A DNA stretch of 64,000 nucleotides. Source: Zopfochytrium polystomum (Eukaryota; Chytridiomycota; Chytridiomycetes; Chytridiales; Chytridiaceae). The notes beneath the pieces were generated by a model that was not told where the DNA came from, searched no databases, and saw only the letters and a program-made list of their open reading frames with translations. The stretch is taken from assembly GCA_025765615.1 (NCBI GenBank), contig JAIVFJ010000259.1, positions 22,168-86,167 of the forward strand. The letters run 5' to 3'. A program made the translations under genes and the position numbers. This document shows positions 17,651 to 57,290 of this stretch, piece after piece (positions within the stretch are counted from its first letter, which is position 1; the number at the start of each line of letters is the position of its first letter).

Positions 17651-18142
17651 ATCACTGGTGCTGCCTGTGGCAAAAAGTGCAACTAGCTCGTCCCATTTCC
17701 TCATAATGCAGTGTATGGCAAAGTGGTTCTCCTTCCCACAATGGTGACACAGCACTGACATCCTCAGTGGTGCAACTCCTTGTTGCTGATCCTGAGCTGT
17801 GCACCTGGAGAGTTGGCCTCAGGCACTGCACTATGTGCAGCCTGATTTTCTGGTTGTCTCGAGTTTGGGAGGTGTGGTATCCACGTTGCTCAGATTGCTG
17901 TTCTCCATAATGTTCTCTACCCTGTTGCCCAGCGCAGGCACCCTGACCATGGTGGTGCCCACCACAGATTTCACTGTCATGGTGGTGTCGCTCAGCCTGG
18001 TGGGAGCGCCTTTGCTCTCAGCGGTCATGGAAGTTGCTAAGTAGTGCAGCCTCATTGACTTGCTCTGCTGGTGGTGTGACAGTTGGTCCTTTAGGTTTGT
18101 TACAGGCTTCCATTGTCTTAGGAAGGCAAAGAGGGCGGATAT
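17651..18142 (-). pseudogene. Copia relic (Copia-1 family), middle and zinc-knuckle part of gag
   Basis: Minus-strand translation in mixed frames shows the family's Val-Asn-Glu-Ala-Ala-Leu-Leu-Ser block (about 18055-18030) and a CCHC knuckle (Cys-His-His-Cys-Gly-Lys-Glu-Asn-His-Phe ... Cys, about 17755-17710). It continues at 10640 after removal of Copia-2. On the other side, about 115 gag codons are missing where truncated Gypsy-2 now abuts. Confidence 0.75.
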
Positions 18143-18331
18143 TTTGAGAATCTTCCTTGTCAAGACTCAAAGAATGTTCCAGAAAGAGCAATTAGTAATA
18201 CAATGATACCAATGATACCAATGACAACAAGACAAGTCAGGAAAGCAAAGAAGGTTCCAGAGGGTTCTACAAGATTCCATGAAGGAATGTTCTAGAAGGT
18301 TCCAGAAGGTTCCAGAAGGTGATTCATAACA
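18143..18331 (-). repeat. Gypsy-2 3' LTR, truncated
   Basis: Matches the first ~190 bp of the Gypsy-1 LTR in reverse complement, from GATTCATAACA (ending 18331) back to TTTTGAGAATC. It stops just before the TATA region, abutting Copia gag. Confidence 0.9.
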
Positions 18332-20455
18332 TCATCTCCCTCTTTTAGGCCTCTTCTGCAACTTGGTGGGGTACCTGGTCTTGAACTTGAGCAGAAGGTC
18401 TTGGCAGTGAGTGAGGTTTGACTCAGGTTCCCAGGTGTTGTCAGCATCTGAGTAACCTTTCCACGTGACAAGGAAGTTGAGTGTCCTTCCAAACCACTTG
18501 GCATCCAAGATTTGTTCAACCTCAAATTCCTCTTCACCATCTACCTCAACTGGAGGAGGAGGAGGAAAAACTCTGCCTGGAATGGAATTGGCCACAAACT
18601 TCTCCAAAAGGCTGACATGGAAAACTGGGTGGATCTTCATTGATGCAGGGAGATCCAGCTTGAAGGTGACTGGATTGATTTGCTCCAAGATCTTGAAAGG
18701 TCCCAACTTGAGGTTGTCTAGCTTGGGACTTGGTCTTTTGGTCTGCAAGTTCTTCCTCACGCCTGGCCAGTAAAAGTCTCTGGAAACAAGCTAATATGTC
18801 TTGTGCTCTCCTGGGTGTCCAGCTGTTGCTGCATCATGCCTTGTCTTGAGTATCTCAAGTTTTTCCTCTTCTTGGCTGATTTGAATCTTGTGAGGCTTGG
18901 GGTCCTTGGAAATAGCATAGGCCCACACACTGTCACAAAGCAGTGAAAGGTGTGTCTTGGATGGTGGGGTGAAAACATCTCCCCCTTCAGGTGCAAGGAC
19001 TGTCCTTCTGTGCTCATCAGCAGCGGGGCTTGAATTAGTTGACTGGGAACTGTGATTCTTGAATCTTTGACTGGGTTCTGTTCTTGGCAAAGACTGTGAG
19101 CTGTGGAGCTTGATCTTGAATTTGGACTGTGAGCTGTGGTACTTGAATCTTTGACTGTGGGTTCTGTGAACTACAGACTTGGCCATGACTGTGAGCTCTA
19201 TGAGCTGTACTGGAATCTTGACTATGAACTGTGAACTGTGAAACTTGAATCTTGGCTGGGATCTGTGAGCTGCAGGCTGATACTGGAGCTGTCATTTGTA
19301 GTTGACCTTGGATACTAGGCTGAGAACCTTGAATCAGGGACTTGAGAGCATGAGACTTGGAGGCTTGACTTGAGTTTTGGGTGACTGTTCCAATGGTTGT
19401 GATGGTTGACTTGGGTGAGAGTTGAACCATGACATCCATGGTGAGTTGGTGGGGCTTGGAATCTGAGGTGGTTGTGGTGCTGGTGGTGGTGATGAAACAG
19501 GGGCAGCTTGGAGGAGGGTCCAGGGAATTGCCCCTCAGTGAGCCTGGATCTGGGAGTTTGGGTGCTTCTTCCTTGGGCAGTCCTTGACAGCATGCTCCTT
19601 GGAGCCACAGTAGAAACACAGTCCCTGCTGGCCCTCCTTGTTTTCTCCTCTTGGCTCAGAGGACCCTTAGGAAGTGTCTCAACTGCATCCACTTGCATGG
19701 GTTCAGGAACTGTAAGAGCTTGAGGGACTGGGGTAGGTCTTGATGTAGTTCCTACTTGTCTTTGCTTCAGCCTCTTGGAGTAGAGTCTGTTGTCAATCTT
19801 GATGGCAAGGAGAATGTACTCTTCCAAGGTCTCTGGAATGTGCAGAGACTGGGAAAGCATGTCTTGGATAGACTCATGGAGACCATCATGGTACAGCTCC
19901 ATCAGAGCAGCATCATTGTATCCAGATTCTCTGGCTAGTTGCTTGAATTGGTTGGTGTAGGCCACACAAGATTGCTTTCCTTGCTTGATATGCTTGAGCT
20001 TGGATCTTGCTGTCCAAGATGCATAGGGGTCACCAAAGGTAGCTTCCAGCCCCTCCCAGAGCTCTTGCAGGGTGGTGGGTGTGCTTGGGAGAGATCTGTA
20101 CCATGATTGAGCTTGACCAGACAGGAGGGTGCTTGTGAAAAGAACCTTGACTTGCTCACTGGGAAATCATGAAGGTTGGAGAAAGATGACATTCTCCACA
20201 GTGGCCATAAAGTTCCTCAGGTCATTGGCCAGCCCAGTGAACTTGTCAGGGCTGGGAACCTTGGGCTCTCTTGCTTGGTTGGCTTGGGGCAGGGGAAGAG
20301 CTTGATGTTCTTGTTGGTGAAGTTGTTGTTGAAGCTGGTGCTGCTGGTGAAACTTGTTCTTGAAGTTGGTGTGTCTGTCTTGAAAGGGCTTGTAATTGGT
20401 CCATCAAGGCTTGGAAGGCAGTTGCATCAGGGAAGGTGTTGTTTGGGTCAGACAT
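18332..20455 (-). pseudogene. Gypsy-2 gag-pol remnant
   Basis: Gag ATG ends at 20455. The capsid region is colinear with Gypsy-1 gag but carries frameshifts near 20160-20200. The zinc knuckle and the CCCAAAC slip heptamer are retained near 19550-19620, but the downstream stem has one pair disrupted. After deletions the remaining parts are the Gln/Ser/Pro-rich linker (19480-19035), a piece of RNase H end and integrase zinc finger (19020-18780), and the integrase C-terminus with chromodomain (18760-18332: Glu-Gln-Ile-Leu-Asp-Ala-Lys-Trp, Trp-Lys-Gly-Tyr-Ser-Asp-Ala-Asp). No reverse transcriptase or integrase activity can be encoded. Confidence 0.88.
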
Positions 20456-42330: not shown

Positions 42331-42868
42331 GTGAACTGGGTCTTATGAGATCTCCTCTTCATCTTCAGGGGCTCATCCATAGTCTAGTGGCAATAGGGAT
42401 AAGACAAGTCTTTAAGATGGGAAGCTCCTGGTTATTAGCAGAGCCAGTACCCTGGATTCAGCTCAAACTCAACAAAGATGGATGATGTGGTTCAGTTCTG
42501 TCTTTATTCAAGGACAGCTAGACCAAGTGGAGTTGCTCAAGTACCCCACAGGCCCCAGGTTCAAGCCCTGGCTATCCAACATGGTGACCAACAGGCAGCA
42601 GTTCAACAAAGGAATGCCCTAAGGCAGTATGGCATCTGCCAGTATCACAGAGACAGAGCTCAATGTGAGAACCAACCAGGTAGGAGAAGGAAGAGAAAGG
42701 AAAGGGAAGGAAACCTCACCCCAGCTTGGCATACAACACACTGGCCTGGGGAAATCACACCTCTACTAGCTTGGTCTGGTAGCACTGGCCTAAGAGGACT
42801 CCATCCCCAGCTTGGTCTGGTAGCACTGGCCTAGGGAGAAACACCAAAGAGGAAAGAAAAGGATTGGT
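42331..42868. repeat. Unclassified repeat sequence with a tRNA-like segment
   Basis: Contains a partial tandem duplication (AGCTTGGTCTGGTAGCACTGGCC at about 42768 and 42809). A tRNA-like stretch at 42512-42577 has GGACAGC/GCTATCC ends pairing at 6 of 7 positions and a perfect CCAGG-TTCAAGC-CCTGG T-arm, but its D-arm is poor. No coding signal. Confidence 0.4.
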
Positions 42869-43193
42869 TGTTACCTAGGTAGGATTTATTGAGAGAGAGT
42901 AGATATATATAGAACAAAGGAGGGGAGAGAGGGAGTATTTATAGGAAAGGGGAGGAGAGAAAAAAGGAAAGAAGGAAGAAAGAAAGAAAAGAGAAAAAGG
43001 GAAAGACATAACAAAAGGAGAAAATGAAAGAAAGAACAAGTTGGAAGGGTGAATCACTCTTTCAGCCACACCCCCCCTCCACCCAGTGTCTCTCCTGCCT
43101 CCAAATTTGGGGTGAACATAATTTGAGGCTTTGAGGCCACATCAGTGCAGGGACAGTGGATTGAAAGGTGGGAAAATGAGAGAAAAAGGAAAA

Positions 43194-43491
43194 TGTTATG
43201 AATCACCCTCTGGAAACCTCTGGAACCTTCTAGAACATTCCTTCATGGAACCTTCTGGAACCTTCTTTGCTTTCCTGACTTGTCTTGTTGTCATCGGTAT
43301 CATTGGTATCATTGTATTACTAATTGCTCTTTCTGGAACTTTCTTGGAGTCTTGACAAGGAAGACTCTCAAAAGGTATAAAAGGGGGATGGGGGACCTGT
43401 CCCATCCCTCAAGTGAATTATTGTTTCCAATACAATCATCACTCCTCTCAGCTCCTTGTCTGCCTTGTCCTGTCCTGCCATGTTCCTGACA
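43194..43491 (+). repeat. Gypsy-1 5' LTR
   Basis: TGTTATGAATC...TCCTGACA. TATA box TATAAAAGG at 43376. The predicted transcript start lies near 43411, 35 nt downstream, where the self-primer sequence AAGTGAATTAT begins. Confidence 0.97.
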
Positions 43492-43504
43492 TCATAATTC
43501 ACTT
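43411..43504 (+). promoter_or_regulatory. Self-priming pair: 5' RNA end and primer-binding site
   Basis: AAGTGAATTAT (43411-43421) is exactly complementary to ATAATTCACTT (43494-43504), which starts 2 nt after the 5' LTR. Complementarity stops at exactly 11 nt on both sides. This is the arrangement known for Tf1 and related chromoviruses, where the mRNA 5' end folds back to prime minus-strand synthesis instead of a tRNA. Confidence 0.85.
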
Positions 43505-43531
43505 CACCCTCTCCTACTACTCTCTGCCATC

Positions 43532-44455
43532 ATGTCTGACCCAAACAACACCTTCCCTGATGCAACTGCCTTCCAAGCCTTGATGGACCAATTACAAGCC
43601 CTTTTAAGACAGACACACCAACTTCAAGAACAAGTCCTTCACCAGCAGCACCAGCTTCAACAACAACTTCACCAACAAGAACATCAAGCTCTTCCCCTGC
43701 CCCAAGCCAACCAAGCAAGAGAGCCCAAGGTTCCCAGCCCTGACAAGTTCACTGGGCTGGCCAAAGACCTTAGGAACTTTATGGCCACTGTGGAGAATGT
43801 CATCCTTCTCCAACCTTCAAGATTTCCCAGTGAGCAAGTCAAGGTTCTTTTCACAAGCACCCTCCTGTCTGGTCAAGCTCAATCATGGTACAGATCTCTC
43901 CCAAGCACACCCACCACCCTGCAAGAGCTCTGGGAGGGGCTGGAGGCTACCTTTGGTGACCCCTACGCATCTTGGACAGCAAGATCCAAGCTCAAGCATA
44001 TCAAGCAAGGAAAGCAATCTTGTGTGGCCTACACCAACCAATTCAAGCAACTAGCCAGAGACTCTGGATACAATGATGCTGCTCTGATGGAGCTGTACCA
44101 TGATGGTCTCCATGAGTCTATCCAAGACATGCTCTCCCAGTCTCTGCACATCCCTGAGACCTTGGAAGAGTACATTCTCCTTGCCATCAAGATTGACAAC
44201 AGACTCTACTCCAAGAGGCTGAAGCAAAGACAAGTGGGAACTACATCAAGGCCTACCCCAGTCCCTCAAGCTCTTACAGTTCCTGAACCCATGCAAGTGG
44301 ATGCAGTTGAGACACTTCCTAAGGGTCCTCTGAGCCAAGAGGAGAAAACAAGGAGGGCCCAGCAGGGACTGTGTTTCTACTGTGGCTCCAAGAAACACGC
44401 TGTCAAGGACTGCCCAAGGAAGAAGCACCCAAACTCCCAGGTCCAGGCTCACTGA
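43532..44455 (+). CDS. gag: Gypsy-1 Gag
   Basis: 307 residues from a real ATG 41 nt after the 5' LTR. A Gln/His-rich N-terminus predicted to coil (residues 20-55) precedes the retrotransposon gag capsid domain (about 70-190, with Gln-Ala-Gln-Ser-Trp-Tyr-Arg-Ser-Leu). A CCHC knuckle (Cys-Phe-Tyr-Cys-Gly-Ser-Lys-Lys-His ... Cys, residues 282-295) lies near the end. It assembles the particle and packages RNA. Pol overlaps its last 85 nt in the -1 frame, and the slip heptamer lies 19 nt before the TGA. The ORF has no damage. Confidence 0.95.
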   Translation: MSDPNNTFPDATAFQALMDQLQALLRQTHQLQEQVLHQQHQLQQQLHQQEHQALPLPQANQAREPKVPSPDKFTGLAKDLRNFMATVENVILLQPSRFPSEQVKVLFTSTLLSGQAQSWYRSLPSTPTTLQELWEGLEATFGDPYASWTARSKLKHIKQGKQSCVAYTNQFKQLARDSGYNDAALMELYHDGLHESIQDMLSQSLHIPETLEEYILLAIKIDNRLYSKRLKQRQVGTTSRPTPVPQALTVPEPMQVDAVETLPKGPLSQEEKTRRAQQGLCFYCGSKKHAVKDCPRKKHPNSQVQAH

Positions 44456-47400
44456 GGGGCAATTCCCTGGACCCTCCTCCAAGCTGCCCCTGTTTCATCA
44501 CCACCACCAGCACCACAAACACCTCAGATTCCAAGCCCCACCAACTCACCATGGATGTCAAGATTCAACTCTCACCCAAGTCAACCATCACAACCAAGGC
44601 CCTTATCGACTCTGGATCATCCTGCAACATCATTGATGCCACCCTTGCCAAGTCTTGTGCCATTCCCACCATCAAGAAATCCACACCCCTCAAGGTCCAC
44701 TTTGCCAATCATGCTCTGTTCAAGGAAATCAGCCATGAAACCAAGCTAAACCTCCACATCCAAGACTTTCCACCATCCATGGTCAATCTGGAAGTATTGG
44801 ATCTTGGCTCACCCACATTCTCTGTCATCCTGGGATTACCATGGCTGCAAGCCCAGAACCCTGCCATTGATTGGGTCACTGGTCAAGTCCAACCTCCACC
44901 AATCGGAACAGTCACCCAAAACTCAAGTCAAGCCCCCAAGTCTCATGCTCTCAAGCCCTTGATTCAAGATTCACAGCCAGCCAAGACTCAAGTTCCACAG
45001 TTCACAGTTCACAGTCAAGATTCAAGTAGAGCTCATAGAGCTCACAGTCATGGCCATGACTCTTGTTCACAGAACCCACAGTCAAAGATTCAAGTACCAC
45101 AGTTCACAGTCCACATTCAAGATTCAAGTTCCATAGCTCACAGTCTTTGCCAAGAACAGAACTCTCAGTCAAAGATTCAAGAATCACAGTTCCCAGTCAA
45201 GAATTCAAGCCCCACTGCTGAGGAGCACGACAACCTGGACCCATCAGAACTTTTGCTGGCATCCAAGCTACCAAAAGAATATCTCCCTTATGCTGATGTG
45301 TTTTCCAAGACCAAGGCAGACCTGCTACCAGCTCAGAGGCCTTATGACTGTGAAATCCCACTCAAGGATGAAACTTGCAGCCCACCTTTCAAGCCACTGT
45401 ACCACCTCTCTCCACCAGAAGCCAAGGCCCTCCAAGAATACATTGAAGAAATGCTGAACAAGGGATTCATCCAACCTTCCAAGTCACCAGCTGGAGCTCC
45501 CATCTTTTTTGTCAAGAAGAAGGATGGGGGACTGAGACCCTGTGTGGACTACAGAGATCTCAATGAGATGACAGTCAAGAACCGCTATCCACTGCCTCTC
45601 ATCTCTGAATTACTGGACAAACTGAGCCATGCAAGGATATTTTCCAAGATTGACCTCAGAGGTGCCTACAATTTGGTCAGAATTAAGCCCCAGGATCAAT
45701 GGAAGACTGCCTTCAGATGCAAATACGGTCACTTTGAGTACTTGGTTATGCCCTTTGGACTTACCAATGCTCCAGCTATTTTCCAAGGCATGATGAATGA
45801 CATCTTCAGGGATATTCTGGACCTTTTTGTCATTGTCTACCTGGATGATATCCTGGTATTTTCATCTGACACTGCAAGCCATATGGGACATGTCAAGACT
45901 GTCTTGGAGAGACTCAGACAGCATCACCTCTATGCAAAGCTGGAGAAGTGTGAATTCCACAAGACCTCCATTGAGTTTTTGGGGTTCATTGTGTCTGACA
46001 AAGGGATCTCCATGGCACCAGACAAGATCCAAACTATTCTTGAATGGAAGGCTCCAAATTCCATCAAGGATGTTCAAAGCTTCCTTGGATTTTGCAACTT
46101 CTACAGAACCTTCATTGCCAACTATTCTGCCATAGCCAAGCCTCTCACTGATCTCACCAAGAAGACCACCAAGTTTGAATGGACCCCAGCAGCAGAGCAA
46201 GCCTGGCTAGCTCTTAAGAAAGCAACCACAAGTGCACCACTCCTTAAGCATGTGGATCCCTTGCTTCCCTTCACCTTGGAAACTGATGCCTCAGACTATG
46301 CCCTTGGCGCTGTTCTGTCCCAGCCAAGCTCTCAGGACCCCTCTGCTCCTCTGCATCCAGTGGCATATTACTCCAGGAAGCTGAACAGTGCTGAGTGTAA
46401 CTACACAGTCCATGACAAGGAGTTGCTTGCAATTGTGGAAGCATTCAAATTCTGGAGACACTACTTGACTGGTTCTAAAGGCATCTCTGTCTATTCTGAT
46501 CACAAGAACCTCACCTTCTTCAGGGCAAGGTGGTTGCTCAAGCAGAGGCATGCCAGGTGGGCTGAACTGCTCTCTGAGTATGACTTTAAGCTGTGCTATT
46601 CTCCTGGCCACCTTAACACTGTGGCTGATGCCCTGTCAAGAAGAACAGACCTTGCACCTGAAGGGGGAGATGGTTTCACCCCACCATCCAAGACACACCT
46701 TTCATTGCTTCCTGACAGTGTGTGGGCCCATGCTATTTCCAAGGACCCCAAGCCTCACAAGATTCAAATCAGCCAAGAAGAGGAAAAACTTGAGATACTC
46801 AAGACAAGGCATGATGCAGCAACAGCTGGACACCCAGGAGAGCACAAGACATATGAGCTTGTTTCCAGAGACTTCTACTGGCCAGGCATGAGGAAGTACA
46901 TCAAGAACTATGTCAGCAGCTGTGAAACCTGTCAAAGAAACAAATCCAGCAGACACAAGCCCTATGGACTTCTGGAGCCCCTCCCAATTGCCATCAGCCC
47001 TTGGTCATCAATATCCATGGACTTCATTGTGAAACTGCCCCCATCCCATGGATTTGACTCTATCCTTGTTGTCATCTGCAGAAGGACAAAGTTGGCCCAT
47101 TTCATCCCCTGCACTGAGAATATAGATGCACAAGGAACAGCAGACCTGTTTTTGCAGCACATATTCAGGCTCCATGGGCTGCCTCAGTCAATCGTCAGTG
47201 ACAGAGGACCACAGTTCAGATCTCAATTTTGGAAAGCACTCACAGCAGCCCTTGGAATCAAGTCTCAACTGTCAACTGCTTATCACCCTCAGACTGATGG
47301 ACAAACAGAAAGAACAAACCAGACTCTGGAGCAGTATTTGAGGTGCTATGTCAGCTATCAACAGGATGATTGGCCCACCCTCCTTCCACTGGCAGAATTT

Positions 47401-48090
47401 GCTCTCAACAATTCTCTCCACTCAAGCACCCAGCTATCTCCTTTCTTTGCAACCTATGGCTTCAATCCAAGAGGAGATCTTCTGGGACAAGAGACCCTAT
47501 CCAATGTCCAAGCTCCTGCTGCGGCTTCACACTTACATAAGCTCAAGATCATCAACTCCTTCCTGGACTCCACCCTGAAGCAAGCCCAAGAAGATGCCTC
47601 AAGATTTGCCAACACTCACAGAATGGACCATGACCTTGCTGTGGGTCAGCAAGTTTGGCTTCTGAGGAAGAACTTGCAGACCAAAAGACCAAGTCCCAAG
47701 CTAGACAACCTCAAGTTGGGACCTTTCAAGATCTTGGAGCAAATCAATCCAGTCACCTTCAAGCTGGATCTCCCTGCATCCATGAAGATCCACCCAGTTT
47801 TCCATGTCAGCCTTTTAGAGAAGTTTGTGGCCAATTCCATTCCAGGCAGAGTTGTTCCTCCTCCTCCTCCAGTTGAGGTAGAAGGTGAAGAGGAATTTGA
47901 GGTTGAACAAATCTTGGATGCCAAGTGGTTTGGAAGAACACTCAAGTTCCTTGTTAAGTGGAAAGGTTACTCAGATGCTGACAACACCTGGGAGCCTGAG
48001 TCAAACCTCACTCACTGCCAAGACCTTCTGCTCGAGTTCAAGACCAGGTACCCCACCAAGTTGCAGAAGAGGCCTAAAAGGGGGAGATGA
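44371..48090 (+). CDS. pol: Gypsy-1 Pol (protease, RT, RNase H, integrase, chromodomain)
   Basis: Open frame of 1,239 codons starting at a GTG, so it has no own ATG and is expected only as a Gag-Pol fusion through the -1 shift near 44434. Order: protease (Ile-Asp-Ser-Gly, residue 80), a linker of degenerate Gln-Val-Pro-Gln-Phe-Thr-Val-His repeats (200-280), RT (Tyr-Leu-Asp-Asp at 490-493), RNase H (Glu-Thr-Asp-Ala-Ser, about 638), integrase HHCC finger (about 815-860), and integrase core with Ser-Met-Asp-Phe, Ser-Asp-Arg-Gly and Gln-Thr-Glu-Arg acidic residues. It ends in a chromodomain (about 1178-1228: Trp-Lys-Gly-Tyr-Ser, Trp-Glu-Pro-Glu). Chromodomains of this type steer integration to marked chromatin. 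No stop interrupts it. Confidence 0.96.
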   Translation: MFLLWLQETRCQGLPKEEAPKLPGPGSLRGNSLDPPPSCPCFITTTSTTNTSDSKPHQLTMDVKIQLSPKSTITTKALIDSGSSCNIIDATLAKSCAIPTIKKSTPLKVHFANHALFKEISHETKLNLHIQDFPPSMVNLEVLDLGSPTFSVILGLPWLQAQNPAIDWVTGQVQPPPIGTVTQNSSQAPKSHALKPLIQDSQPAKTQVPQFTVHSQDSSRAHRAHSHGHDSCSQNPQSKIQVPQFTVHIQDSSSIAHSLCQEQNSQSKIQESQFPVKNSSPTAEEHDNLDPSELLLASKLPKEYLPYADVFSKTKADLLPAQRPYDCEIPLKDETCSPPFKPLYHLSPPEAKALQEYIEEMLNKGFIQPSKSPAGAPIFFVKKKDGGLRPCVDYRDLNEMTVKNRYPLPLISELLDKLSHARIFSKIDLRGAYNLVRIKPQDQWKTAFRCKYGHFEYLVMPFGLTNAPAIFQGMMNDIFRDILDLFVIVYLDDILVFSSDTASHMGHVKTVLERLRQHHLYAKLEKCEFHKTSIEFLGFIVSDKGISMAPDKIQTILEWKAPNSIKDVQSFLGFCNFYRTFIANYSAIAKPLTDLTKKTTKFEWTPAAEQAWLALKKATTSAPLLKHVDPLLPFTLETDASDYALGAVLSQPSSQDPSAPLHPVAYYSRKLNSAECNYTVHDKELLAIVEAFKFWRHYLTGSKGISVYSDHKNLTFFRARWLLKQRHARWAELLSEYDFKLCYSPGHLNTVADALSRRTDLAPEGGDGFTPPSKTHLSLLPDSVWAHAISKDPKPHKIQISQEEEKLEILKTRHDAATAGHPGEHKTYELVSRDFYWPGMRKYIKNYVSSCETCQRNKSSRHKPYGLLEPLPIAISPWSSISMDFIVKLPPSHGFDSILVVICRRTKLAHFIPCTENIDAQGTADLFLQHIFRLHGLPQSIVSDRGPQFRSQFWKALTAALGIKSQLSTAYHPQTDGQTERTNQTLEQYLRCYVSYQQDDWPTLLPLAEFALNNSLHSSTQLSPFFATYGFNPRGDLLGQETLSNVQAPAAASHLHKLKIINSFLDSTLKQAQEDASRFANTHRMDHDLAVGQQVWLLRKNLQTKRPSPKLDNLKLGPFKILEQINPVTFKLDLPASMKIHPVFHVSLLEKFVANSIPGRVVPPPPPVEVEGEEEFEVEQILDAKWFGRTLKFLVKWKGYSDADNTWEPESNLTHCQDLLLEFKTRYPTKLQKRPKRGR
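44428..44473 (+). promoter_or_regulatory. Gypsy-1 programmed -1 frameshift cassette
   Basis: CCCAAAC (44428-44434) is in the gag frame as C-CCA-AAC. A 5-nt spacer follows, then a perfect 8-bp stem GGTCCAGG (44440-44447) / CCTGGACC (44466-44473) with the gag TGA in its 18-nt loop. The -1 frame from 44434 is the pol frame. Confidence 0.8.
48076..48090 (+). promoter_or_regulatory. Gypsy-1 polypurine tract
   Basis: AAAAGGGGGAGATGA immediately before the 3' LTR, overlapping the last pol codons. Expected plus-strand primer. Confidence 0.9.
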
Positions 48091-48388
48091 TGTTATGAAT
48101 CACCCTCTGGAAACCTCTGGAACCTTCTAGAACATTCCTTCATGGAACCTTCTGGAACCTTCTTTGCTTTCCTGACTTGTCTTGTTGTCATTGGTATCAT
48201 TGGTATCATTGTATTACTAATTGCTCTTTCTGGAACTTTCTTGGAGTCTTGACAAGGAACACTCTCAAAAGGTATAAAAGGGGGATGGGGGACCTGTCCC
48301 ATCCCTCAAGTGAATTATTGTTTCCAATACAATCATCACTCCTCTCAGCTCCTTGTCTGCCTTGTCCTGTCCTGCCATGTTCCTGACA
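48091..48388 (+). repeat. Gypsy-1 3' LTR
   Basis: 298 bp, differing from the 5' LTR at two positions (C/T near the GTCAT-GGTAT site and G/C in the AAGGAA-ACTCTC site). Ends TCCTGACA and is followed by the second GAAAA. Confidence 0.97.
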
Positions 48389-48634
48389 GAAAATGAGTAA
48401 AAATAAGAATGAATAGGATGAATGAGGGGTGTGCCCCTTGTGCTTAGGCCCATTCAGCACAAGGAACACAGGATGCTCTTTTATAGTGATAAACACTAGA
48501 GCCCGTGAGGGATGTGATGAATGGTAATAAAAAATAAATATGGGGGGCCAATATAATGACATAGTCACAACTGGGGAAGAGCTTTTAGGGAGACCCCAGC
48601 TAAGACCATGATCAGTGAGATTAGGAATCTCACA

Positions 48635-48915
48635 GTACCTCTTTTTCAATATCCTAGCGCCCCGTTCGCAGGATCAGTACAGCAGTGGTAGGGAGTCGAG
48701 AGCGTTCGTCACTGGGTGGACACCCTATGGATCCACTACTTATACTTAACTGGAGGGAGCTGCCGCAATCGCGAAGATCGGGCCATCGGAGGTGGGTCTG
48801 GAGGCGTAGTTGCAGGTGTTGAGGGAGTGCCAGTTGCTTTGGATTGTTTAAGCTTTTGTAGGGCTTCTTGTCTTTCTTTATAAGCAGTGGGATTGGTCCG
48901 GCGGACATTATCCCA
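48635..48915 (-). other. Gypsy-3 3' untranslated region
   Basis: From the stop after the chromodomain-like tail to the polypurine tract. No coding motif. Confidence 0.5.
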
Positions 48916-49660
48916 CTATTCTTTGACAAATTCAGGGTCCATATCAACTTCCTCATTCCAACTGTTAAAGCGATTGGAATAATTTTTCCATTTGAGGTGG
49001 TATGAATAAGTGTTGTCATTGTTATGGCGGAAGGCTAAGATCTTGTCGACCTCATACAAAGGATTGTAGATGTCGGCTTCAGTAAAGTGAGGATCAAAGC
49101 AACGCATAAGTTCAATACTCATTCCGAGTGCGGTACGTTGAGATGTGGCAGGCCTTCTTTTCAGAATTACTGCTTTTTCCCATTCTTTTATTGCAGTGGC
49201 GAGCTCTTCAGCGTTGCTTTTAAGTGCGTCCTCAGCAGAATCAATGGGGACTCGAGGAGTGAAGGGGCGTAGTCGGGAGATATGAACAGTGCGTGCAGCA
49301 ATCTCTTTGCCAGGAAAGGTTTCAATGACGGTGCATTTAGAATTGGAGTCTTTTCCGTCAACGCGGATTATGCGGACAGGCCCAGCCCATCGGTAAAGGA
49401 AACTTTCGTTCTCCGGCATGTCAGAGCGCGTCGGTCTGAGGATAACAGCCATCCAGGCTCTATCGCCAGGAAAAAGTTTATGTGGGTTGGAGTCTGTTTC
49501 TTTCGATTTTTTCTTCAATTGTTTTTGTTGTGCTGTGGCATTTTGTTGTGCGACCAAGTGGGCATGCGTTAATATATCAAGAGTATGCACGACATAATGT
49601 CGAATTTGTATTTTTAACATAAATACAACTCTCTTGCTCAGAGGGTTGGAGAAAATGATT
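48916..49660 (-). pseudogene. Gypsy-3 integrase C-terminus with chromodomain-like tail
   Basis: Minus-strand frame one base off from the integrase core ORF, overlapping it at 49577-49660. It opens with the helix after the integrase core (Ala-His-Leu-Val-Ala-Gln-Gln-Asn-Ala-Thr), then a GPY/F-like module (Phe-Leu-Tyr-Arg-Trp-Ala-Gly-Pro-Val-Arg-Ile). It ends in a chromodomain-like fold (Tyr-Glu-Val-Asp-Lys-Ile-Leu; Leu-Lys-Trp-Lys-Asn-Tyr; Asn-Ser-Trp-Asn). The tail departs from the usual Trp-Glu-Pro, so binding specificity may differ. The frame offset shows at least one indel in this old copy. Confidence 0.8.
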
Positions 49661-52381
49661 TAAATCTTTGTTTTCAGTAAGGTAGGTGACAGTGAGATCT
49701 TCTTCACCTTGTGGTGAAGGAAGATGGAGAAGCAGAGGCGATGATGCGCCTTCCCAAAGTAATAAGCCTTGGGGAGGTTCAGAGCTATTGACGTCAATCA
49801 GTTTTACACTGGTGGGCGCAAGCATACTATGCCAAAAGTGGAGGTTCGCAATTTCATCTGATGTGCAATATCCTCGTGGGAAGGAAGGGCAAGGCCCATC
49901 AGTCTCTTGGAACAGGGTCCCACGTAGGGAATAGATGTAGCGAATCTCTTTTTTCTGCGGATTGTAGAATATGACTGACCGAACAAGCACTCCATGGTTG
50001 GTACGGAGGAAAAAAGGGAGATCTACCTTCTTTATGGATTGGGTCTGTCGAGTACGTGTGAATACAATGTATACAATATCAAGGTTATGAATCTCAACGA
50101 GATCAGTCCAGATGCGTGAGGCAGATGGTTCTGTTGGGTAAGGACGCAGCTTTCGTGGGATATGCTGGAGCAGCGTCATTCGAAGGTCAAATGTTTTGAT
50201 ATATGCAATGCGGAGGAATGGTGCTGGTTCAAGCTTAGGGTTTAAGGTAAGCGGGATAGCTTTTCCCCTTACTACAGCGTGAGAAAGAAGAGTTTCTGGT
50301 TCATTGTCATTGCGGTCAGGGATGCCAGCGACGTCAGACACTTTAGTAATTTGAGGCATGTCCTCATAATCCTCAGGGGTGACTCCGAGGAAGAGGTCAG
50401 GGGGTAAACGGCAGTCACGTCCATGTAATAAGAAGAAGGGTGTATCACTGAGGAGTGGGTGAGGATGAGTACGATATGCAAAAAGCACATAAGGAAGGAT
50501 TTGGGGCCAGTCCTCATGGGTGTGTTGGTTGATGTAGGCACGAATCATAGTTTTCAAAGTTTTAATGAAACGTTCAGCAGTACCATTGGCGCGGGGCCAG
50601 TATGGCGATGTAAAAGACTGTCCCATTCCGAGAACGTGTCCGATAGCAGAAACTAGTGCAGATTTGAGCGGTTGGCCGTTATCAGAATGAATTTCAACAG
50701 GGATTCCGTGTCGACAGAAGACATGTTCAACTAGTGCTGCTGCAACTGTCATATCTTCAAGATCAGTGAGAGGGATGGCTTCAGCCCATCGTGTGAAGTA
50801 ATCTACAACAACAAGGATGTATTTATAACCATCAGGCGTTTCTTTGAAAGGTCCAGCAAAATCAATTGCAATTCTTTCAAAAGGAAAAGAGCCGATAGGT
50901 ATCGGGTGAAGATATCCTGGTCGATGAGGGTGATCTTTGGTTTTCTGGCATGTCTCACAACTCTGGATGTGATTCTCCAAGTCAGTTGTGATAGTAGGCC
51001 ACCAGAATCGATCAAGGAGGATATCCATTGATTTTCTTTTGGCAAAGTGACCAGCAAATAAGTCATCATGGAAGAGTCGTAGGCTCTCGCGCCGCAGAGA
51101 ATCTGGAACACACAGGGCAAGTCGAAGTGGAGTGCGTTTCAACATAAATGAGGGGAGGTCGAGTATACAATACAAAAGCCCCTTGCGGACAATCATCTTT
51201 TCAGCCCATTTGGTCAGAGCTTCAGGCAGATTGTTGTCAATAGCACCAGTTTCACGGAAGCGGAGGATGGGTCCAAAGAACTTATCAGCAAGTTGTAATT
51301 CTCTAACTTTGTCAGTTTTGGCAAATACGCCAAGCTTCTCAAACATGAATGATTCAAAGCCTGTAGCCAGTAATTTGTTTACAAGTGATTCATAATTGGG
51401 CTTTGTGGGACGTATTGTTCCATAAGGGCGAGGTGTGTGATTAAAATGAGGGGATTCTTGTACTCGCTCTGTCATGCAGAGATGACGGCGGGGAAGAGGT
51501 TCGTTAAAGTTATCCAATTCATAAAGTGACGACATTCGTTTAAGAATTGGAGTGAAATCCAAAGGGAGGAAGCAATCAACACGAAGATGATCACTTGGCA
51601 GGTCGATGGTGGATGAAAGTTGTGTTTGGGTGCGTGGACTATAGATCCGTTTGTCAAGGAAAATATAATCAACACGGAGAGCAGGGTAATCAACAGTTTT
51701 ACCCAGGATCCTGCCTTGTGGTGCAAGCCAGGTATAACCGTTGGTTAGTGGATGATCAGTGCGGTAAGCATCAATGAAGCCGTCATTGAGAAAGGCAGTT
51801 ATCCAGTCACGTTCCCAAGCAAAATAAGTTGAGAATGAGGCATCTTTCTGAGTCAAGTATTTCTCAATTGCGGGGTGAATATCCATCTCAGTATGGGCAA
51901 TGTTAAAATCACCAGCAATGATGAGGAGATATCCTTGGCTTTTAAGATAATGACAATGGCTCCGCAGATTCACAAGAAAGGCTTTCTTTGTTTTTTCTCT
52001 GTCAGGGTCATGGAATGCGCTAGGCACATAAACAGTGATAACAGCCATTTCACCAAATGCAACGGTAATAATGCGCCCTTCCTCATCAGGGTGATGGGAA
52101 TAAGGTGAGCATTTATGTTCAATTCCATGGAGTTCTTACTTCCAAAAGATGGCGACACCATTTTTACCAGTACGGGGGTCGTGTATGACACAATTCCAGT
52201 TTGCAAGATTGCAGAGACCAGTATACAGGGAACCAGCTTTCGAACCAATGCGAGTTTCCTGGAGACAGATAATTGAGCATGGTTGCGAATCGAGGTATTT
52301 CTCAAAGATGGCAAGAGCAGGGGTATTATCATCAGAAGGTCGAATTCGACGAGCCCATGATCGAATGCTGTTCAGGTTCTA
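49577..52381 (-). pseudogene. Gypsy-3 pol, exonuclease III/AP-endonuclease-like domain fused to integrase
   Basis: One minus-strand frame, open from 52135 to 49577, with nonsense codons only at 52379-52381 (TAG, where the fold usually has Trp) and 52136-52138 (TAA). The first part is an EEP nuclease of the ExoIII/APE class: Asn-Leu-Asn-Ser-Ile-Arg (52378), Gln-Glu-Thr-Arg (Glu at 52256), Asp-Glu-Glu-Gly-Arg, Tyr in Val-Tyr-Val-Pro (52030), Gly-Asp-Phe-Asn (51913-51902), Arg-Val-Asp-Tyr (Asp at 51670) and Ser-Asp-His (51595-51587). All expected catalytic positions are occupied. Integrase follows: an HHCC finger (His-X6-His, Cys-X2-Cys, about 51070-50950), then Asp396, Asp456 and Glu492 (numbered from 52048) in exact D,D-35-E spacing. 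Residues ~578-823 (50317-49577) are unrecognised. ExoIII-type enzymes cut DNA at abasic sites and trim 3' ends; a role in the element's replication is inference. Confidence 0.88.
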
Positions 52382-54881
52382 TGCCAGAGGGTGTGACAGC
52401 ACCATGAAGAGGTTCTGATAGAGCTGAGGTATTTTTTACCTCTTTTTCAACACTAATGTTGGTCTCAAGAGGAGATTTGGTATCAGAAACAGGTTCTGAT
52501 TCTTCAACATCGGCAAATTCTTCAGGGTCGGTGTTCATATCAAAAGGAACTCGGGAGAGGGTGTCAGCAACAATATTGGACTTGCCAGGGACATGGACAA
52601 GCTCAACATCAAGGTCGCTAATTTGGTAAGCCCATCGGGCAAAACGGCCAGTTAAGCCTCCATTCTTAAACAAATGCAGGAGGGAAATATGATCAGTTTC
52701 AACTGTAAACTTCTGGTTGAATGTATATCGTTCGAATGTGTCAATGGCCCAGATAACAGCAAGCCCTTCACGATCTGTGTTACTGTAGCGCTTCTCCACA
52801 TCGGTGAGGACGCGGGAGGCAAATGCGATAGGTTTTCGGAGATGACGTGAAGTTGGATGTTCTGGGTCAACAGCATAAAGTGCAGCACCAAGGGCGACTT
52901 TAGATGCATCACAAACAATAACAAGTTTGTCGGACTCTTGTGGTAAGTAAAGGAGCGTATCCTTCGCAAGTTCTGCTTTGAGGATCTGGAAGGCATTTTC
53001 CTGGTCAGCAGTCCAAGTAAATGCGTCAGTTTTCTTCAACAATTGGTAAAGTGGTTCTGCTTTATCAGAAAAGTGTGGAATAAATCTCTTAAAGTAGTTG
53101 GCAAAACCAAGGAAACGTTGCAATTGCGTCAGCGTTTGGGGTGTTGGGTAATTATCGAGAGATACAGTTTTGGTGTAGTCTTTGCACACTCCATCCTTTG
53201 AGACACGATGTCCAAGGAACGGAAGGTCAGCATAAAGAAAGTTGCATTTGGAGGGTTTAAGCTTCAGATTATATCCCTTAAGTCTTTCAAAGACATTACG
53301 AAGGTGTTCAAAGTGTTGATCGAGTGAGTCAGAGTAGATGACAATGTCGTCAACATAAACCATGCAATAAAGCCATTTGATACCAGCCAGGACAGTGTCC
53401 ATAGCACGTTGGAAGGTTGGTGGGCTATTACAAAGTCCAAAGGGCATGACATTGAATTCATGAAGGCCTTGTGAGGTTATGAATGCAGTTTTTTCTCTGT
53501 CGTCAGGATGAACAGGGATTTGCCAGAATCCACTAAGTAGATCCATAGCACTGAATACAAGTTTATGACCAATGGCGTCAAAGATCTCCTCGATACGGGG
53601 GCGTGGATATCTGTCACGGACAGTGATTTCATTCAGTTTTCTGAAGTCGGCACAGAAACGCCATGAACCATCTGGCTTTTTGGCAAGTACAACAGGAGCA
53701 GCAAAGGGCGATCGAGACTCTCGAATGACATTATCATTTTTCATCTTAGAGATGTGTTCACGTAGAACAGCAGTTCTTCCCATTCCTTCAGGGTACGGAT
53801 TGGAGGCAGGAATCTTAGCTCCAGGTTGAAGCTCAATCCGATGAGGTGATGCAAACTTAGTTCCAGTGATTTTTCCAGGTCGGAAGATGTCAATGAACTC
53901 AAAAACGAGTGCTTTCAGCTTCTGGACAGCTTCTTCTCCTTCTTCTCCAAAGGTTTTGACAATGTGACCAGTTTTAATCTTATTACATATATCATCATTG
54001 GTCATGGTTGCTTCAGCTGGAAGGTAATCAAGTCGTTCTTCTGCCACAGAGTTTCTCATTGGCATCTGTGGGTCTAATTCAGAATGGAGAGCAGTTGGAA
54101 CTTCTCTGAGAGAAACTGCTTCTGGTTCGGCAAAAGTTTCACCAGAAAATGTGGTGGAGGTTTCATCAGAGTCAGGGTTTCTAGCAACTCGGGTAGACTG
54201 AAGAAGGTCCTCCCACTGAGAGAAGTCAGTTTTGTTAATTTCTGAATTAAATATAAATTCTGACAGGTCAGCACAGTTGCCAACTGTGGCTTCTGATGCA
54301 TTGTCATCAAAATTAGGATCGTCGAGCTTATTCAGGATATCTAGGAAGGACGTAGTGTCTGAAGGATCATGTTTTGAAGCAAGGAGAGTCATTTCAATCA
54401 AGCTTTGAGGGTCATTATGGAGTGAGTCAGGAACATCAATGATTTGCTTCGGCCGAGGGTCAAACGGGACTTCTCCATGTTTGTTCTCTGGTGGTGGTGG
54501 GAGATCAAGGATAGAGGCAAATCTGGTTCCTCTTTTGATGCGAATCAGGGCACTTCCTGTCATGAAGATGGGCAATTTGAATTCCCTTGCATGTTCATAA
54601 ACATGAAGGTCATTGGCGTTAAAGAGTGATGAAGGGAAAAGTATTCCTTTGTCAGTGAGGCTGTTCTCAGGTGAGGCATGGACGAGAGTGTCACGGTACT
54701 CGAGTGGTCGATCTAACATCAGGTGGACTGCATTCTTATCACTACCAGGAAGGAGGGTAATGTTCTTAGTGGCAATGAGAAAAGAGTAGGAGATCTCTTC
54801 TTTGATTGGTATTCTCTGAGTCCAATGGGTTTTCAATGGGTTGTCATAAGTTGACGGCCAAGGTATGTGTTGATGGTCCAT
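52332..54881 (-). pseudogene. Gypsy-3 reverse transcriptase and RNase H
   Basis: 849-codon open frame. After a ~300-residue linker come the RT blocks: Ser-Pro-Phe-Ala-Ala-Pro-Val-Val-Leu, Arg-Phe-Cys-Ala-Asp-Phe-Arg-Lys-Leu-Asn, Met-Pro-Phe-Gly-Leu and Tyr-Val-Asp-Asp (53346-53357). RNase H has Val-Cys-Asp-Ala-Ser, the Asp-Arg-Glu-Gly-Leu-Ala box and Glu-Thr-Asp-His, then the tether ends in Ala-Asp-Thr-Leu-Ser-Arg. It stops at 52332, about 50 nt inside the nuclease domain read in the +1 frame. At its start, a 10-bp tandem duplication (about 54824-54843) puts it out of frame with protease. The RT itself shows no missing catalytic residue. Confidence 0.92.
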
Positions 54882-55729
54882 TCAACTTGCGATGTACTGT
54901 ATTTGATGTCAATGTTAAAACTGCGCATTGCAGGGGTACCGATGATAATAGGTCGAGGGCACTTCTGAACAACAGAGAACCAGAGGGTGCGAGAGCCACG
55001 GCTTGAGTGGCCGAGGTTAAGCTGAAGCTTAGTATATCCGATGATTGGGACATGGCCACCAATTCCACTACTCATTTTGGGTGTTTTTGGTTTGTAGTTG
55101 ATGGTCATATGCTCAATTTTCTTTAGGAGGTCAACTGTGATGACATTGTGATTAGAACCTGAGTCGATGAGGCAGTTGGGAATAACTTTTCCTTCAAGCC
55201 AAGCGCAGGCTTCAGCAACAGTAGAGTCACGAAATTGCTGGTAATCTTCATCTGGCGGCTCAGCAAGTTCTAAATCAGGCTGTGCAGTTGACATTTTGTT
55301 TTTTGTAGTTGTAAATTCAGGCTCACTTTCGTGATTGGAGCTGGAGTTGGAAGTAGTTCTCGAATCAATTTGAGGAGGTTCATATAAGGTGCTAGTCTTT
55401 TTACATGGTGTATATGAAGTAGGAACAGTCTCTCCAGGTTTTTGAGGGGGTGGTCGCTCCGTTGACCGCAGAGGATTGCGAATGCAAGGGCGAGATGTTT
55501 GAATCAAGCGGAACATCTTCATTAAAAAAGGATTAAGTTCTGGGTGAAAAATGATTGGAGAGGGATAGCGAATAGCAGTAGAAAAATTGTGGGCACACAG
55601 GTGGTAGGTGCCTCCTCCTATATCGGATGGCGCGTCGAACAGATTTACGTAAAGTTGGGGGTAGGACAGTTGGAGAATGGGTAACCCATGTACCATCTTT
55701 TTGAGGGTAAAGGAGAGGTGGAAGCCCAT
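54833..55729 (-). pseudogene. Gypsy-3 aspartic protease region
   Basis: The frame contains a Ser/Thr/Pro-rich gag tail and then the protease: Cys-Leu-Ile-Asp-Ser-Gly-Ser-Asn-His (about 55170) and the Pro-Ile-Ile-Ile-Gly-Thr-Pro flap-like segment (about 54945). It ends at a TGA created by the 10-bp duplication that separates it from RT. It would cleave Gag-Pol. Confidence 0.82.
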
Positions 55730-56430
55730 TCTTAGTTAAAATAGAATAATTGAAATGAAGAATCATGCCAGAGTGGTTCAAGTCAGTAGAGAACTTAAAG
55801 AAGTAACCGATATTTCGGCAGAGCGGGAAGTTGACAGGAAGTCGCTTTGGAGTCTTCAGGATAAGAGTAAAGGGTTGAGGCATGACAGCAACAAGCTTTG
55901 TGATTAAAATTTCATTGAAGTCATCAAGGACAACAGCAGGGTGGCCACCTTGGAAAAGATTTGGCAGAAAAGCAGTGTAAGTTGGGGATAACAGGATGAG
56001 TTTTATTTCTTCTAAAAATGATGGTGATAAGACTGAAGTCAAAGGGGGAAAAGCATGGCTCTCCAATTGGACCATGGTAAAAAAGGATGTAGGTAAATCA
56101 TAAATGGGTTGGGATAAAGGTAAAGATAACTCAAGCAGAGGGCTTGGAGTCATTGGCTTGTTTGAGGCCACTGCAGAGGCAGGGGTTAGAGCAGTTGGAA
56201 ACATAGAAGGCGGAAAGCCATACTTAAGGTAATGTTCAGCCATCTGCATAAGAATGCAGTATCGATCAGGGTGTCAAAGGCTGAGAGGAATGTGACTGCA
56301 GAGCTGAGGAGGCTTGGGCACATAGGGGCCCCTGTTGAAGCTTTGAGAATAGCGACGGCCAGAGGGCAGTTGTTGCTCGTTGTTGTAAACCTCAGCCTCA
56401 GGTTGATCTTCCTCAAAGAGTTGGTCATAG
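55533..56430 (-). pseudogene. Gypsy-3 gag, 5' end lost
   Basis: Two overlapping frames (56428-56186 and 56249-55533) carry a capsid-like region without a visible CCHC knuckle. The true start lies upstream of 56430 and was removed by the Copia-4 insertion. Identity as gag rests mainly on position before protease. Confidence 0.55.
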
Positions 56431-56741
56431 GCTGTTGAGATTCGACCCACGGGGTACACTACGCCCGTTACTGATGATCCCTTTGAGAACTCCATCCAAT
56501 CACATTGGATGGGGTGTTTGAAGGGCTCAGTAGATTCAATACTTGAATGGGGCGCTCGGAAGGGCTAATCTGTTCTCAATAAAAAGAGATAGGCAAAGGC
56601 GGCTGTTGTTCTAGCTTTGTTCATCCTACCGGTAGGAACAATGCAATTAGAACATGCACAAAAACGCGCAAACTACGCACTCTGCACATGTAACACAGCA
56701 CAGCAAGCATGCAGAAGCAGTGTACCACTGCCCCAGGCTCC

Positions 56742-57059: not shown

Positions 57060-57290
57060 CTGGTGGTACTCAGCCCAGACAAAGTGCTCAGCCCAAGGTG
57101 GTACTCAGCCCTGGCTGGTACTTAGCCCTGGGTGGTGCACAGCCCAGGCTGGTACTCAGCCCTGGGTGGTGCTCAGCCCAGGCTGGTACTTAGCCCTGGC
57201 TGGTACTCAGCCCTGAGTGATGCCCAGCCCTGGGTGGTACTCAGCCCTGAATGGGTACTTAGCCCAGGCTGGGGGTTGGTGCTCAGCCTG
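57060..57290 (+). repeat. Tandem ~20-bp repeats in the Copia-4 LTR
   Basis: About ten degenerate units of the type TGGTACTCAGCCC(T/A)GG(G/C), with variants TTAGCCC and TGCTCAGCCC. Also in the 3' LTR (from about 63870) and reversed at 39405-39560. Confidence 0.85.

What the first reader, a model, noticed from the sequence alone, without database searches (positions are those of the whole stretch)
51554..52381. LTR retrotransposon pol carries an ExoIII/AP-endonuclease-type nuclease between RNase H and integrase
Seen: Gypsy-3 encodes a complete EEP nuclease fold with the ExoIII/APE residue set (Asn, Glu, Tyr, Asp-Phe-Asn, Asp, Asp-His), followed without a stop by a gypsy integrase with exact D,D-35-E spacing in the same frame. 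Known: some retroviruses carry dUTPase at this same RNase H-integrase junction, and non-LTR elements carry an APE-type endonuclease before RT; I know of no described LTR element with an ExoIII-type domain here. Inference: the enzyme could repair abasic sites or trim ends of the cDNA, or help integration. The context (GDFN, R-V-D-Y, SDH with the cellular-type 'DEEGR' and 'ERDW' segments) points to capture of a cellular repair gene rather than a LINE.
Basis: partly seen in the sequence, partly recalled or inferred. Interest (0 to 1): 0.93.

Follow-up and report, generated by a model that had tools for sequence, protein, structure and literature searches.

The report
Jumping gene carrying DNA-repair nuclease
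A family of jumping genes related to retroviruses has built a DNA-repair type of enzyme into its own replication protein, just before the part that inserts it into the genome, and copies of the family have kept that enzyme's active site under selection.

Summary
Six other copies lack the deletion. Three have an unbroken frame of 3,723-3,741 aa. Two of these and a fourth copy have LTRs identical over 908-1,098 bp and 4-bp target duplications.

It is neither an assembly join nor chance. In this genome 31 of 35 related RNase H matches have an EEP just downstream. Three public proteins from unnamed organisms share the EEP-integrase order. EEP, RT-RNase H and integrase trees each put these elements in one clade, support 97-100: one capture, then vertical inheritance. 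The domain is ExoIII/APE-like, not LINE-like, keeps its active-site positions and evolves at dN/dS 0.04-0.13 where measurable.

Most likely role, inferred: repair of abasic or 3'-blocked cDNA before integration. Ten paper searches found no such LTR element.

The parts
42344..43004 (-). distal 661 bp of this element's 3' LTR, separated from the rest by a nested element
   Evidence: 97.6% identical to C40 LTR positions 100863-101529
43005..48390 (+). nested second Gypsy element (1,255-aa ORF 44323-48090, no EEP) inserted in the 3' LTR
   Evidence: LTR pieces meet on either side; domains
48391..48634 (-). proximal 244 bp of the 3' LTR
   Evidence: 99.6% identical to C40:100622-100865
48928..49056 (-). 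chromodomain
   Evidence: PF00385 E 2.9e-8
50597..50884 (-). integrase core (rve), D..D-35-E
   Evidence: PF00665 E 2.5e-11
50933..51109 (-). integrase zinc-binding domain
   Evidence: PF17921 E 6.5e-19
51581..52378 (-). EEP (ExoIII/APE-type) nuclease domain, N-terminal strand lost in this copy
   Evidence: PF03372; motifs placed; complete in L009
52136..52138 (-). TAA stop inside the EEP of this copy
52374..52379 (-). scar of a 326-bp deletion with short microhomology; 6 of 6 other copies spanning the place carry the missing stretch
52617..53015 (-). RNase H
   Evidence: PF17919 E 1.2e-26, PF17917 E 6.9e-26
53205..53681 (-). reverse transcriptase
   Evidence: PF00078 E 9.7e-35
54932..55198 (-). 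aspartic protease, weak (18.6 bits, cut-off 24.3)
   Evidence: PF13650 E 0.0032
48391..56432 (-). main body of the truncated window copy of the EEP-Gypsy element (no match to the 5' part beyond 56432)
   Evidence: 98.5-99% identical to six other copies over the main pieces

Best explanation
SHOWN: a clade of Ty3/Gypsy (chromodomain) LTR retrotransposons encodes a presumed Gag-Pol as one very long frame with the order (weak protease)-RT-RNase H-EEP nuclease-integrase-chromodomain. The EEP belongs by sequence to the cellular ExoIII/APE (xth) family. The trees fit one capture before these families split, followed by inheritance with the pol gene under purifying selection, with catalytic residues intact. 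The window copy is a broken member.

INFERRED: the domain is an active AP endonuclease / 3'-repair nuclease that works inside the virus-like particle or preintegration complex. It would nick abasic sites and clear blocked 3' ends in the freshly made cDNA, so that RT can finish both strands and integrase receives repaired, clean 3' ends. Lying between RNase H and integrase, it is delivered with exactly these two enzymes. The likely logic is that of the dUTPase of some retroviruses: protection of cDNA from base damage, here by repair instead of by pool cleaning.
For: Unbroken frames of 3,741, 3,741 and 3,723 aa in C40, C61, C442. Domain order. RNase H, EEP and integrase in that order in 20 of 30 loci given (L026-L032 are one family incl. 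the window copy); 31 of 35 RNase H matches have an EEP match downstream and 29 of 35 integrase matches (43% identity or more) have one upstream. LTR identity 100% over 908, 1,098 and 1,097 bp, 4-bp TSDs CGGT, GCCT, AGCA: integrase-type, recent insertions. One clade in trees of EEP (12 of 12 rows, 100/97), RT-RNase H (10 of 10, 100/100), integrase (11 of 11, 100/100). All nine active-site positions kept in 16 of 19 own segments and 3 of 3 public ones. EEP dN/dS 0.04-0.13 in the eight pairs with measurable values above 0 (two more have dN 0), close to RT, RNase H and most integrase values. xth cut-off passed by 8 of 8. The model of public relative P0151 has an ExoIII-like domain (TM to target 0.64-0.76 in the listed hits) joined by a low-confidence linker to a foamy-virus/Ty3-like integrase. 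Retroviral dUTPase as a precedent for cDNA protection: PMC1224870, passages read; its exact place between RNase H and integrase is recalled.
Against: No activity, expression or substrate was tested. ExoIII-fold enzymes have several activities (AP endonuclease, 3'-5' exonuclease, 3' phosphatase, RNase H-like; recalled), and the sequence does not choose among them. The EEP diverges faster (38% identity between distant families) than RT (78%), RNase H (62%) and integrase (63%), so its role may be less constrained. 4 of 35 RNase H and 6 of 35 integrase matches have no EEP match nearby; these places were not read, so loss of the EEP in some copies is not excluded. Both genome lists are capped at 150 scored candidates. 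Whether the domain is cut free from Pol is unknown. Many EEP matches in the genome are partial or broken.
Confidence: 0.55

Rival explanations
1. The EEP replaces or aids RNA removal: using the RNase H-like activity known for ExoIII, it trims the tRNA primer, the polypurine primer or RNA remnants next to the neighbouring RNase H.
For: Sits after RNase H. A TGG-starting primer-binding-like sequence 1 nt after the 5' LTR and a purine-rich tract before the 3' LTR are seen in C40.
Against: The RNase H domain itself is strongly matched (E 2.4e-25 and 4.9e-26), so the activity would be redundant. RNase H activity of ExoIII is recalled, not tested.
Confidence: 0.15
2. The EEP nicks target DNA or processes LTR ends and so takes part in integration, like the LINE endonuclease or as a helper of integrase.
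For: Lies just upstream of the integrase zinc domain, joined by a low-confidence (probably flexible) stretch in the P0151 model. LTR ends are TG...TA rather than the usual TG...CA.
Against: Insertions have regular 4-bp target duplications in 3 of 3 copies read, as integrase alone makes. The integrase keeps its D,D-35-E. The sequence is close to repair enzymes and far from the L1 endonuclease chain and from the LINE-type profile (at most 16.0 bits, cut-off 27.4).
Confidence: 0.15
3. A non-catalytic role: the EEP fold serves as a nucleic-acid-binding or particle-assembly module.
For: Faster divergence than neighbouring domains.
Against: The catalytic positions are invariant in the seven lineages and in the 16 complete own and 3 public segments.
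Confidence: 0.1
4. The EEP came from a LINE or is a chance or assembly fusion.
For: The genome has many further EEP frames that look LINE-like.
Against: Repeated in 7 copies, in diverged families and in three public proteins; ExoIII/APE-like, not LINE-like.
Confidence: 0.03

Closest known systems
Ty3/Gypsy chromoviruses (Metaviridae with chromodomain)
   Same: LTRs, RT-RNase H-integrase order, H2C2 and D,D-35-E integrase, chromodomain at the C end
   Different: Extra EEP nuclease between RNase H and integrase; 14.7-15.1 kb, single presumed Gag-Pol frame of 3,741 aa; about 1,300 aa at the N-terminus without any Pfam match
Retroviruses with dUTPase (non-primate lentiviruses, betaretroviruses, MuERV-L)
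   Same: A captured host enzyme of DNA-damage avoidance in or next to pol; acquired three times (PMC1224870, passages)
   Different: dUTPase cleans the nucleotide pool; the EEP is a nuclease that would act on DNA
ExoIII / APE1 (xth) repair nucleases, including the DNA uridine endonuclease Mth212
   Same: Sequence family, active site, predicted fold
   Different: Embedded in a retroelement polyprotein; 25-34% identity to the 96 free-standing proteins found
LINE (non-LTR) APE-type endonucleases
   Same: EEP fold in a retroelement
   Different: The one LINE chain listed scores near noise against the element EEP (11.5 bits, E 0.92); LINEs lack LTRs and integrase (recalled)
Orchid Gypsy elements with an ALKBH-type m6A demethylase
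   Same: Giant Gypsy element that captured a nucleic-acid enzyme (PMC9289625, passages)
   Different: Separate additional ORF and a different enzyme

Membership tests
Ty3/Gypsy LTR retrotransposon | direct LTRs with target-site duplication | tested here: met
   100% identical LTRs in C40, C61, C13; 4-bp TSD in 3 of 3
Ty3/Gypsy LTR retrotransposon | RT-RNase H before integrase | tested here: met
   placed in trees with 53 (RT-RNase H) and 57 (integrase) other rows
Ty3/Gypsy LTR retrotransposon | aspartic protease | tested here: inconclusive
   PF13650 18.6 bits, below cut-off 24.3; not listed for L009 at E 0.1
Ty3/Gypsy LTR retrotransposon | recognisable Gag | tested here: not met
   no Pfam family in the first 1,478 aa; no significant similarity to P0003. 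A distant Gag cannot be excluded
chromovirus | chromodomain C-terminal to integrase | tested here: met
   PF00385 32.5-33.9 bits, cut-off 25.1
ExoIII/APE (xth) nuclease | family profile over its cut-off | tested here: met
   TIGR00633, 8 of 8 proteins at 103.7-143.3 bits, cut-off 99.05
ExoIII/APE (xth) nuclease | catalytic Asn, Glu, Tyr, Asp-x-Asn, Asp, Asp-His | tested here: met
   16 of 19 own segments and 3 of 3 public; L038, L050, L054 are segments cut short; L038 has the SDH, L050 and L054 were not checked further
ExoIII/APE (xth) nuclease | AP endonuclease / 3' repair activity | not testable with these tools
   needs biochemistry
LINE APE-type endonuclease | Exo_endo_phos_2 / L1-type similarity | tested here: not met
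   PF14529 at most 16.0 bits, cut-off 27.4, listed for 3 of 6; chain 2v0s 11.5 bits

The most novel reading that the evidence does not exclude
Retroelements carry their own base-excision-repair endonuclease as a fixed Pol module. [quoted passage not shown] The EEP may even act as a DNA uridine endonuclease like Mth212, making it a nuclease counterpart of the retroviral dUTPase and a possible counter-defence.
Probability: 0.25. Interest if true: 0.9.

Novelty: new variant of a known kind. Interest (0 to 1): 0.78.

Why it matters
Added enzyme domains in LTR retrotransposons are considered rare (PMC9289625, abstract passage), and each points at a bottleneck in their life cycle. A conserved, selected AP-endonuclease-type domain between RNase H and integrase suggests that base damage in cDNA limits transposition, and gives a compact, expressible protein with which to test it. 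It also defines a recognisable Gypsy clade with a simple signature for annotation: Exo_endo_phos between RT_RNaseH and Integrase_H2C2. Such frames can be mislabelled, as with P0003, which a source names exodeoxyribonuclease III.

Tried and rejected
Chance or assembly join: rejected (7 copies, many diverged families, public relatives). One capture for all EEP-bearing Gypsy elements: L056 (EEP before RT) as part of the clade is rejected by an AU test on RT-RNase H (p 0.0136), P0016 is not (p 0.433), all 12 together p 0.0174; the long branches of L056 and P0016 make their EEP placement unsure. Viral contigs: 86 pattern matches, 0 confirmed. N-terminal part of the element against P0003: no significant similarity. 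tRNA scan of the window: none. Papers: 10 searches, listings seen (two returned none); passages looked up in PMC3248453, PMC6338049, PMC12440569 (no term found), PMC1224870, PMC9289625, PMC5603734. None of what I saw describes an EEP in an LTR element; subscription papers and Repbase entries are not in this library.

Full report
What is in the window. On the minus strand, 48391-56432 is the body of a Gypsy-type LTR element: weak protease, RT, RNase H, then an Exo_endo_phos (EEP) domain, H2C2 and core integrase, and a chromodomain. Its 3' LTR is split by a second, EEP-free Gypsy element at 43005-48390 (LTR pieces 48391-48634 and 42344-43004), and the 5' part beyond 56432 has no match in the window. 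The EEP motifs and the integrase motifs share a frame, but this copy is broken. A 326-bp deletion at 52374-52379, absent from six of six other copies that span the place, removes most of the RNase H-EEP linker and the first strand of the EEP and shifts the frame against RNase H. A TAA stands at 52136-52138.

The same element elsewhere in the genome. Seven copies of the family, the window's included, were found in the 80.16-Mb, 761-contig assembly. LTRs are 100% identical over 908 bp (C40), 1,098 bp (C61) and 1,097 bp (C13), with a tandem LTR-internal-LTR-internal-LTR arrangement on C49. LTRs start TGTGAG and end CTCATA and are flanked by 4-bp duplications CGGT, GCCT and AGCA. Total length is 14,678, 15,057 and 15,050 bp. 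The EEP sits in unbroken frames of 3,741, 3,723 and 3,741 aa in C40, C442 and C61; the other copies' frames are broken. In L009 (part of the C40 frame) the order is RVT_1 674-832, RNase H 896-1028, Exo_endo_phos 1215-1480 (profile 2-225 of 225, E 8.9e-18), H2C2 1640-1698, rve 1715-1810, chromodomain 2324-2372. The first 1,478 aa give no Pfam match at E 0.1.

Diverged relatives. A search of the genome with the EEP gave 82 matches. Thirty loci were cut out (L026-L032 are the window family; L035 and L036 are one place). In 20 of 30 RNase H, EEP and integrase are matched in that order; 1 has RT, EEP and integrase (L047); 3 have RT, RNase H and EEP without an integrase match (L048, L050, L054); 2 have EEP and integrase only (L052, L055); 4 have the EEP alone. 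Identity of the EEP to the query is 75% in the nearest other family and about 38% in the commonest distant ones, seven of these places in frames of 1,425-3,604 aa without a stop. A count by place: 31 of 35 RNase H matches have an EEP match 37-665 bp downstream on the same strand; the four without it also have no integrase match. 29 of 35 integrase matches of 43% identity or more have an EEP match within 1.5 kb upstream, six have none (the two C348 rows in each list are pieces of one copy; 70 of 82 EEP places were used; both lists are capped at 150 scored candidates). The other 115 of the 150 integrase rows score only 33-35% identity and look like the EEP-free Gypsy of the window's second type, whose own frame was checked for EEP; the rest were not.

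Outside this genome. Three public proteins from unnamed organisms carry the same order: P0002 (1,710 aa, RNase H-EEP-integrase and a chromodomain just under its cut-off), P0003 (3,338 aa, zinc knuckle-RT-RNase H-EEP-integrase-chromodomain) and P0151 (739 aa, EEP-integrase). Of the 53 proteins, only P0002, P0003 and P0016 carry PF03372; in P0016 the EEP stands at the N-terminus, before the RT. A scan of viral contigs gave none. These searches reach only relatives sharing short exact words and of similar length.

Phylogeny. In a 37-row EEP tree the 12 of 12 domains lying between RNase H and integrase (9 of the 19 intact own segments and 3 public ones) form one clade (100/97) against 23 cellular rows (20 of the 96 hits, and three PDB chains) and the two EEP-first elements. 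In a 65-row RT-RNase H tree the 10 EEP elements form one clade (100/100) among 53 rows without EEP. In a 68-row integrase tree 11 of 11 do so (100/100; bootstrap not fully settled). Rows with under 60% of the domain were dropped (78 proteins offered, 65 and 68 kept). Where they share rows, the EEP and RT trees agree: P0003 outside, then the window family with C8/C24 as sister to C54, C136 and the C117-like families. One capture followed by vertical inheritance explains this.

What the nuclease is. All eight proteins given pass the TIGR00633 (xth) cut-off of 99.05 bits. By PDB sequence the best matches are bacterial and archaeal ExoIII/AP endonucleases and APEX1 (E 1.6e-20 to 5.1e-18 for the first six); chain 2v0s (LR1, an L1 endonuclease as I recall) gets 11.5 bits, E 0.92. 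The LINE-type Pfam profile reaches at most 16.0 bits of 27.4. The free-standing proteins found are ExoIII-type at 25-34% identity. The nine positions matching ExoIII N7, E34, Y109, D151, N153, W212, D229, D258, H259 (ExoIII numbering recalled) are kept in 16 of 19 own segments and 3 of 3 public ones; L038, L050 and L054 are segments cut short (L038 shows its SDH). The W212 column is F in APEX1 and T in L056. An AlphaFold2 model of P0151 (mean pLDDT 71.8, pTM 0.45; EEP and integrase blocks mostly 80-96 with dips to 42-68) has a low-confidence stretch 326-365 between the two domains. Among the 50 hits listed, Foldseek pairs one half with foamy-virus and Ty3 integrases and the other with ExoIII homologues such as Mth0212, NApe and APE1, TM to target 0.64-0.76.

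Selection. Nei-Gojobori estimates on intact segments, 17 pairs named: EEP dN/dS is 0.04 (C350/C461, dS 0.61), 0.10 (C350/C136, dS 1.36) and 0.10 (C350/C42, dS 1.43), and 0.07-0.13 among close C350-type copies; two pairs of near-identical EEP copies have dN 0. [quoted passage not shown] Most pairs of distant families are saturated at silent sites and give no ratio. The EEP is thus held by selection but diverges faster than its neighbours: 38% identity between the window family and C350 against 78% (RT), 62% (RNase H) and 63% (integrase).

How it most likely works. Shown: placement, family, intact catalytic residues, selection, integrase-type insertion. Inferred: as part of Pol or cut free from it, the EEP acts on the cDNA as an AP endonuclease and 3'-end cleaner before integration. 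Rivals are help in RNA-primer removal, help in integration, and a structural role. A further EEP in another Gypsy lineage (L056, EEP before RT; two more matches of equal score at C79 and C143 were not read), not a sister of this clade by RT (AU p 0.0136), suggests a second capture and a general benefit.

Known or new. Accessory domains named as well known for LTR polyproteins in PMC6338049 (passage) are the chromodomain and a DnaQ-like exonuclease. PMC9289625 (passages) reports an m6A demethylase ORF. PMC1224870 (passages) reports dUTPase acquired three times by retroviruses. 'LTR Retrotransposons in Fungi' (PMC3248453, passages) mentions complex elements with added domains but has no hit for AP endonuclease or exonuclease. 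Ten full-text searches found no EEP in an LTR element. I therefore rate it a new variant of a known kind.

Noticed in passing
L056 (G000:C55:155000-159500), with matches of equal score at C79:80776-81591 and C143:50358-51173: A different Gypsy-type element has the EEP in front of RT (EEP-RT-RNase H, in the frame after one with an aspartic-protease-like motif seen by eye); not a sister of the main clade by RT (AU p 0.0136).
   Followed up: partly
P0016 (public, 2,304 aa): Gypsy-type polyprotein with an N-terminal EEP before RT-RNase H-integrase; its EEP groups with APE1 and the H. pylori enzyme on a long, unsure branch.
   Followed up: partly
G000 contigs C515 and C253: Exo_endo_phos matches recur at steps of about 5.3-6.1 kb, several in frames of 1,273-1,297 aa, which looks like head-to-tail LINE arrays.
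   Followed up: no
G000:C49:54463-83481: Tandem LTR-internal-LTR-internal-LTR arrangement of the EEP element with near-identical units.
   Followed up: partly
window 43005-48390: EEP-free Gypsy element with an open 1,255-aa frame, inserted in the EEP element's 3' LTR; 115 of 150 integrase rows look like this type, most with the same score.
   Followed up: partly
LTR ends of C40, C61, C13: LTRs start with TG but end with TA; in C40 a TGG-type primer-binding-like site lies 1 nt downstream.
   Followed up: no
window 57067-57270: 17-bp tandem repeat just outside the truncated 5' end of the element.
   Followed up: no
G000:C442:1-1974 and 17427-19400: 100% identical direct repeat of at least 1,974 bp (the second copy runs to the end of the stretch fetched) around the C442 copy, perhaps LTR plus more.
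   Followed up: no
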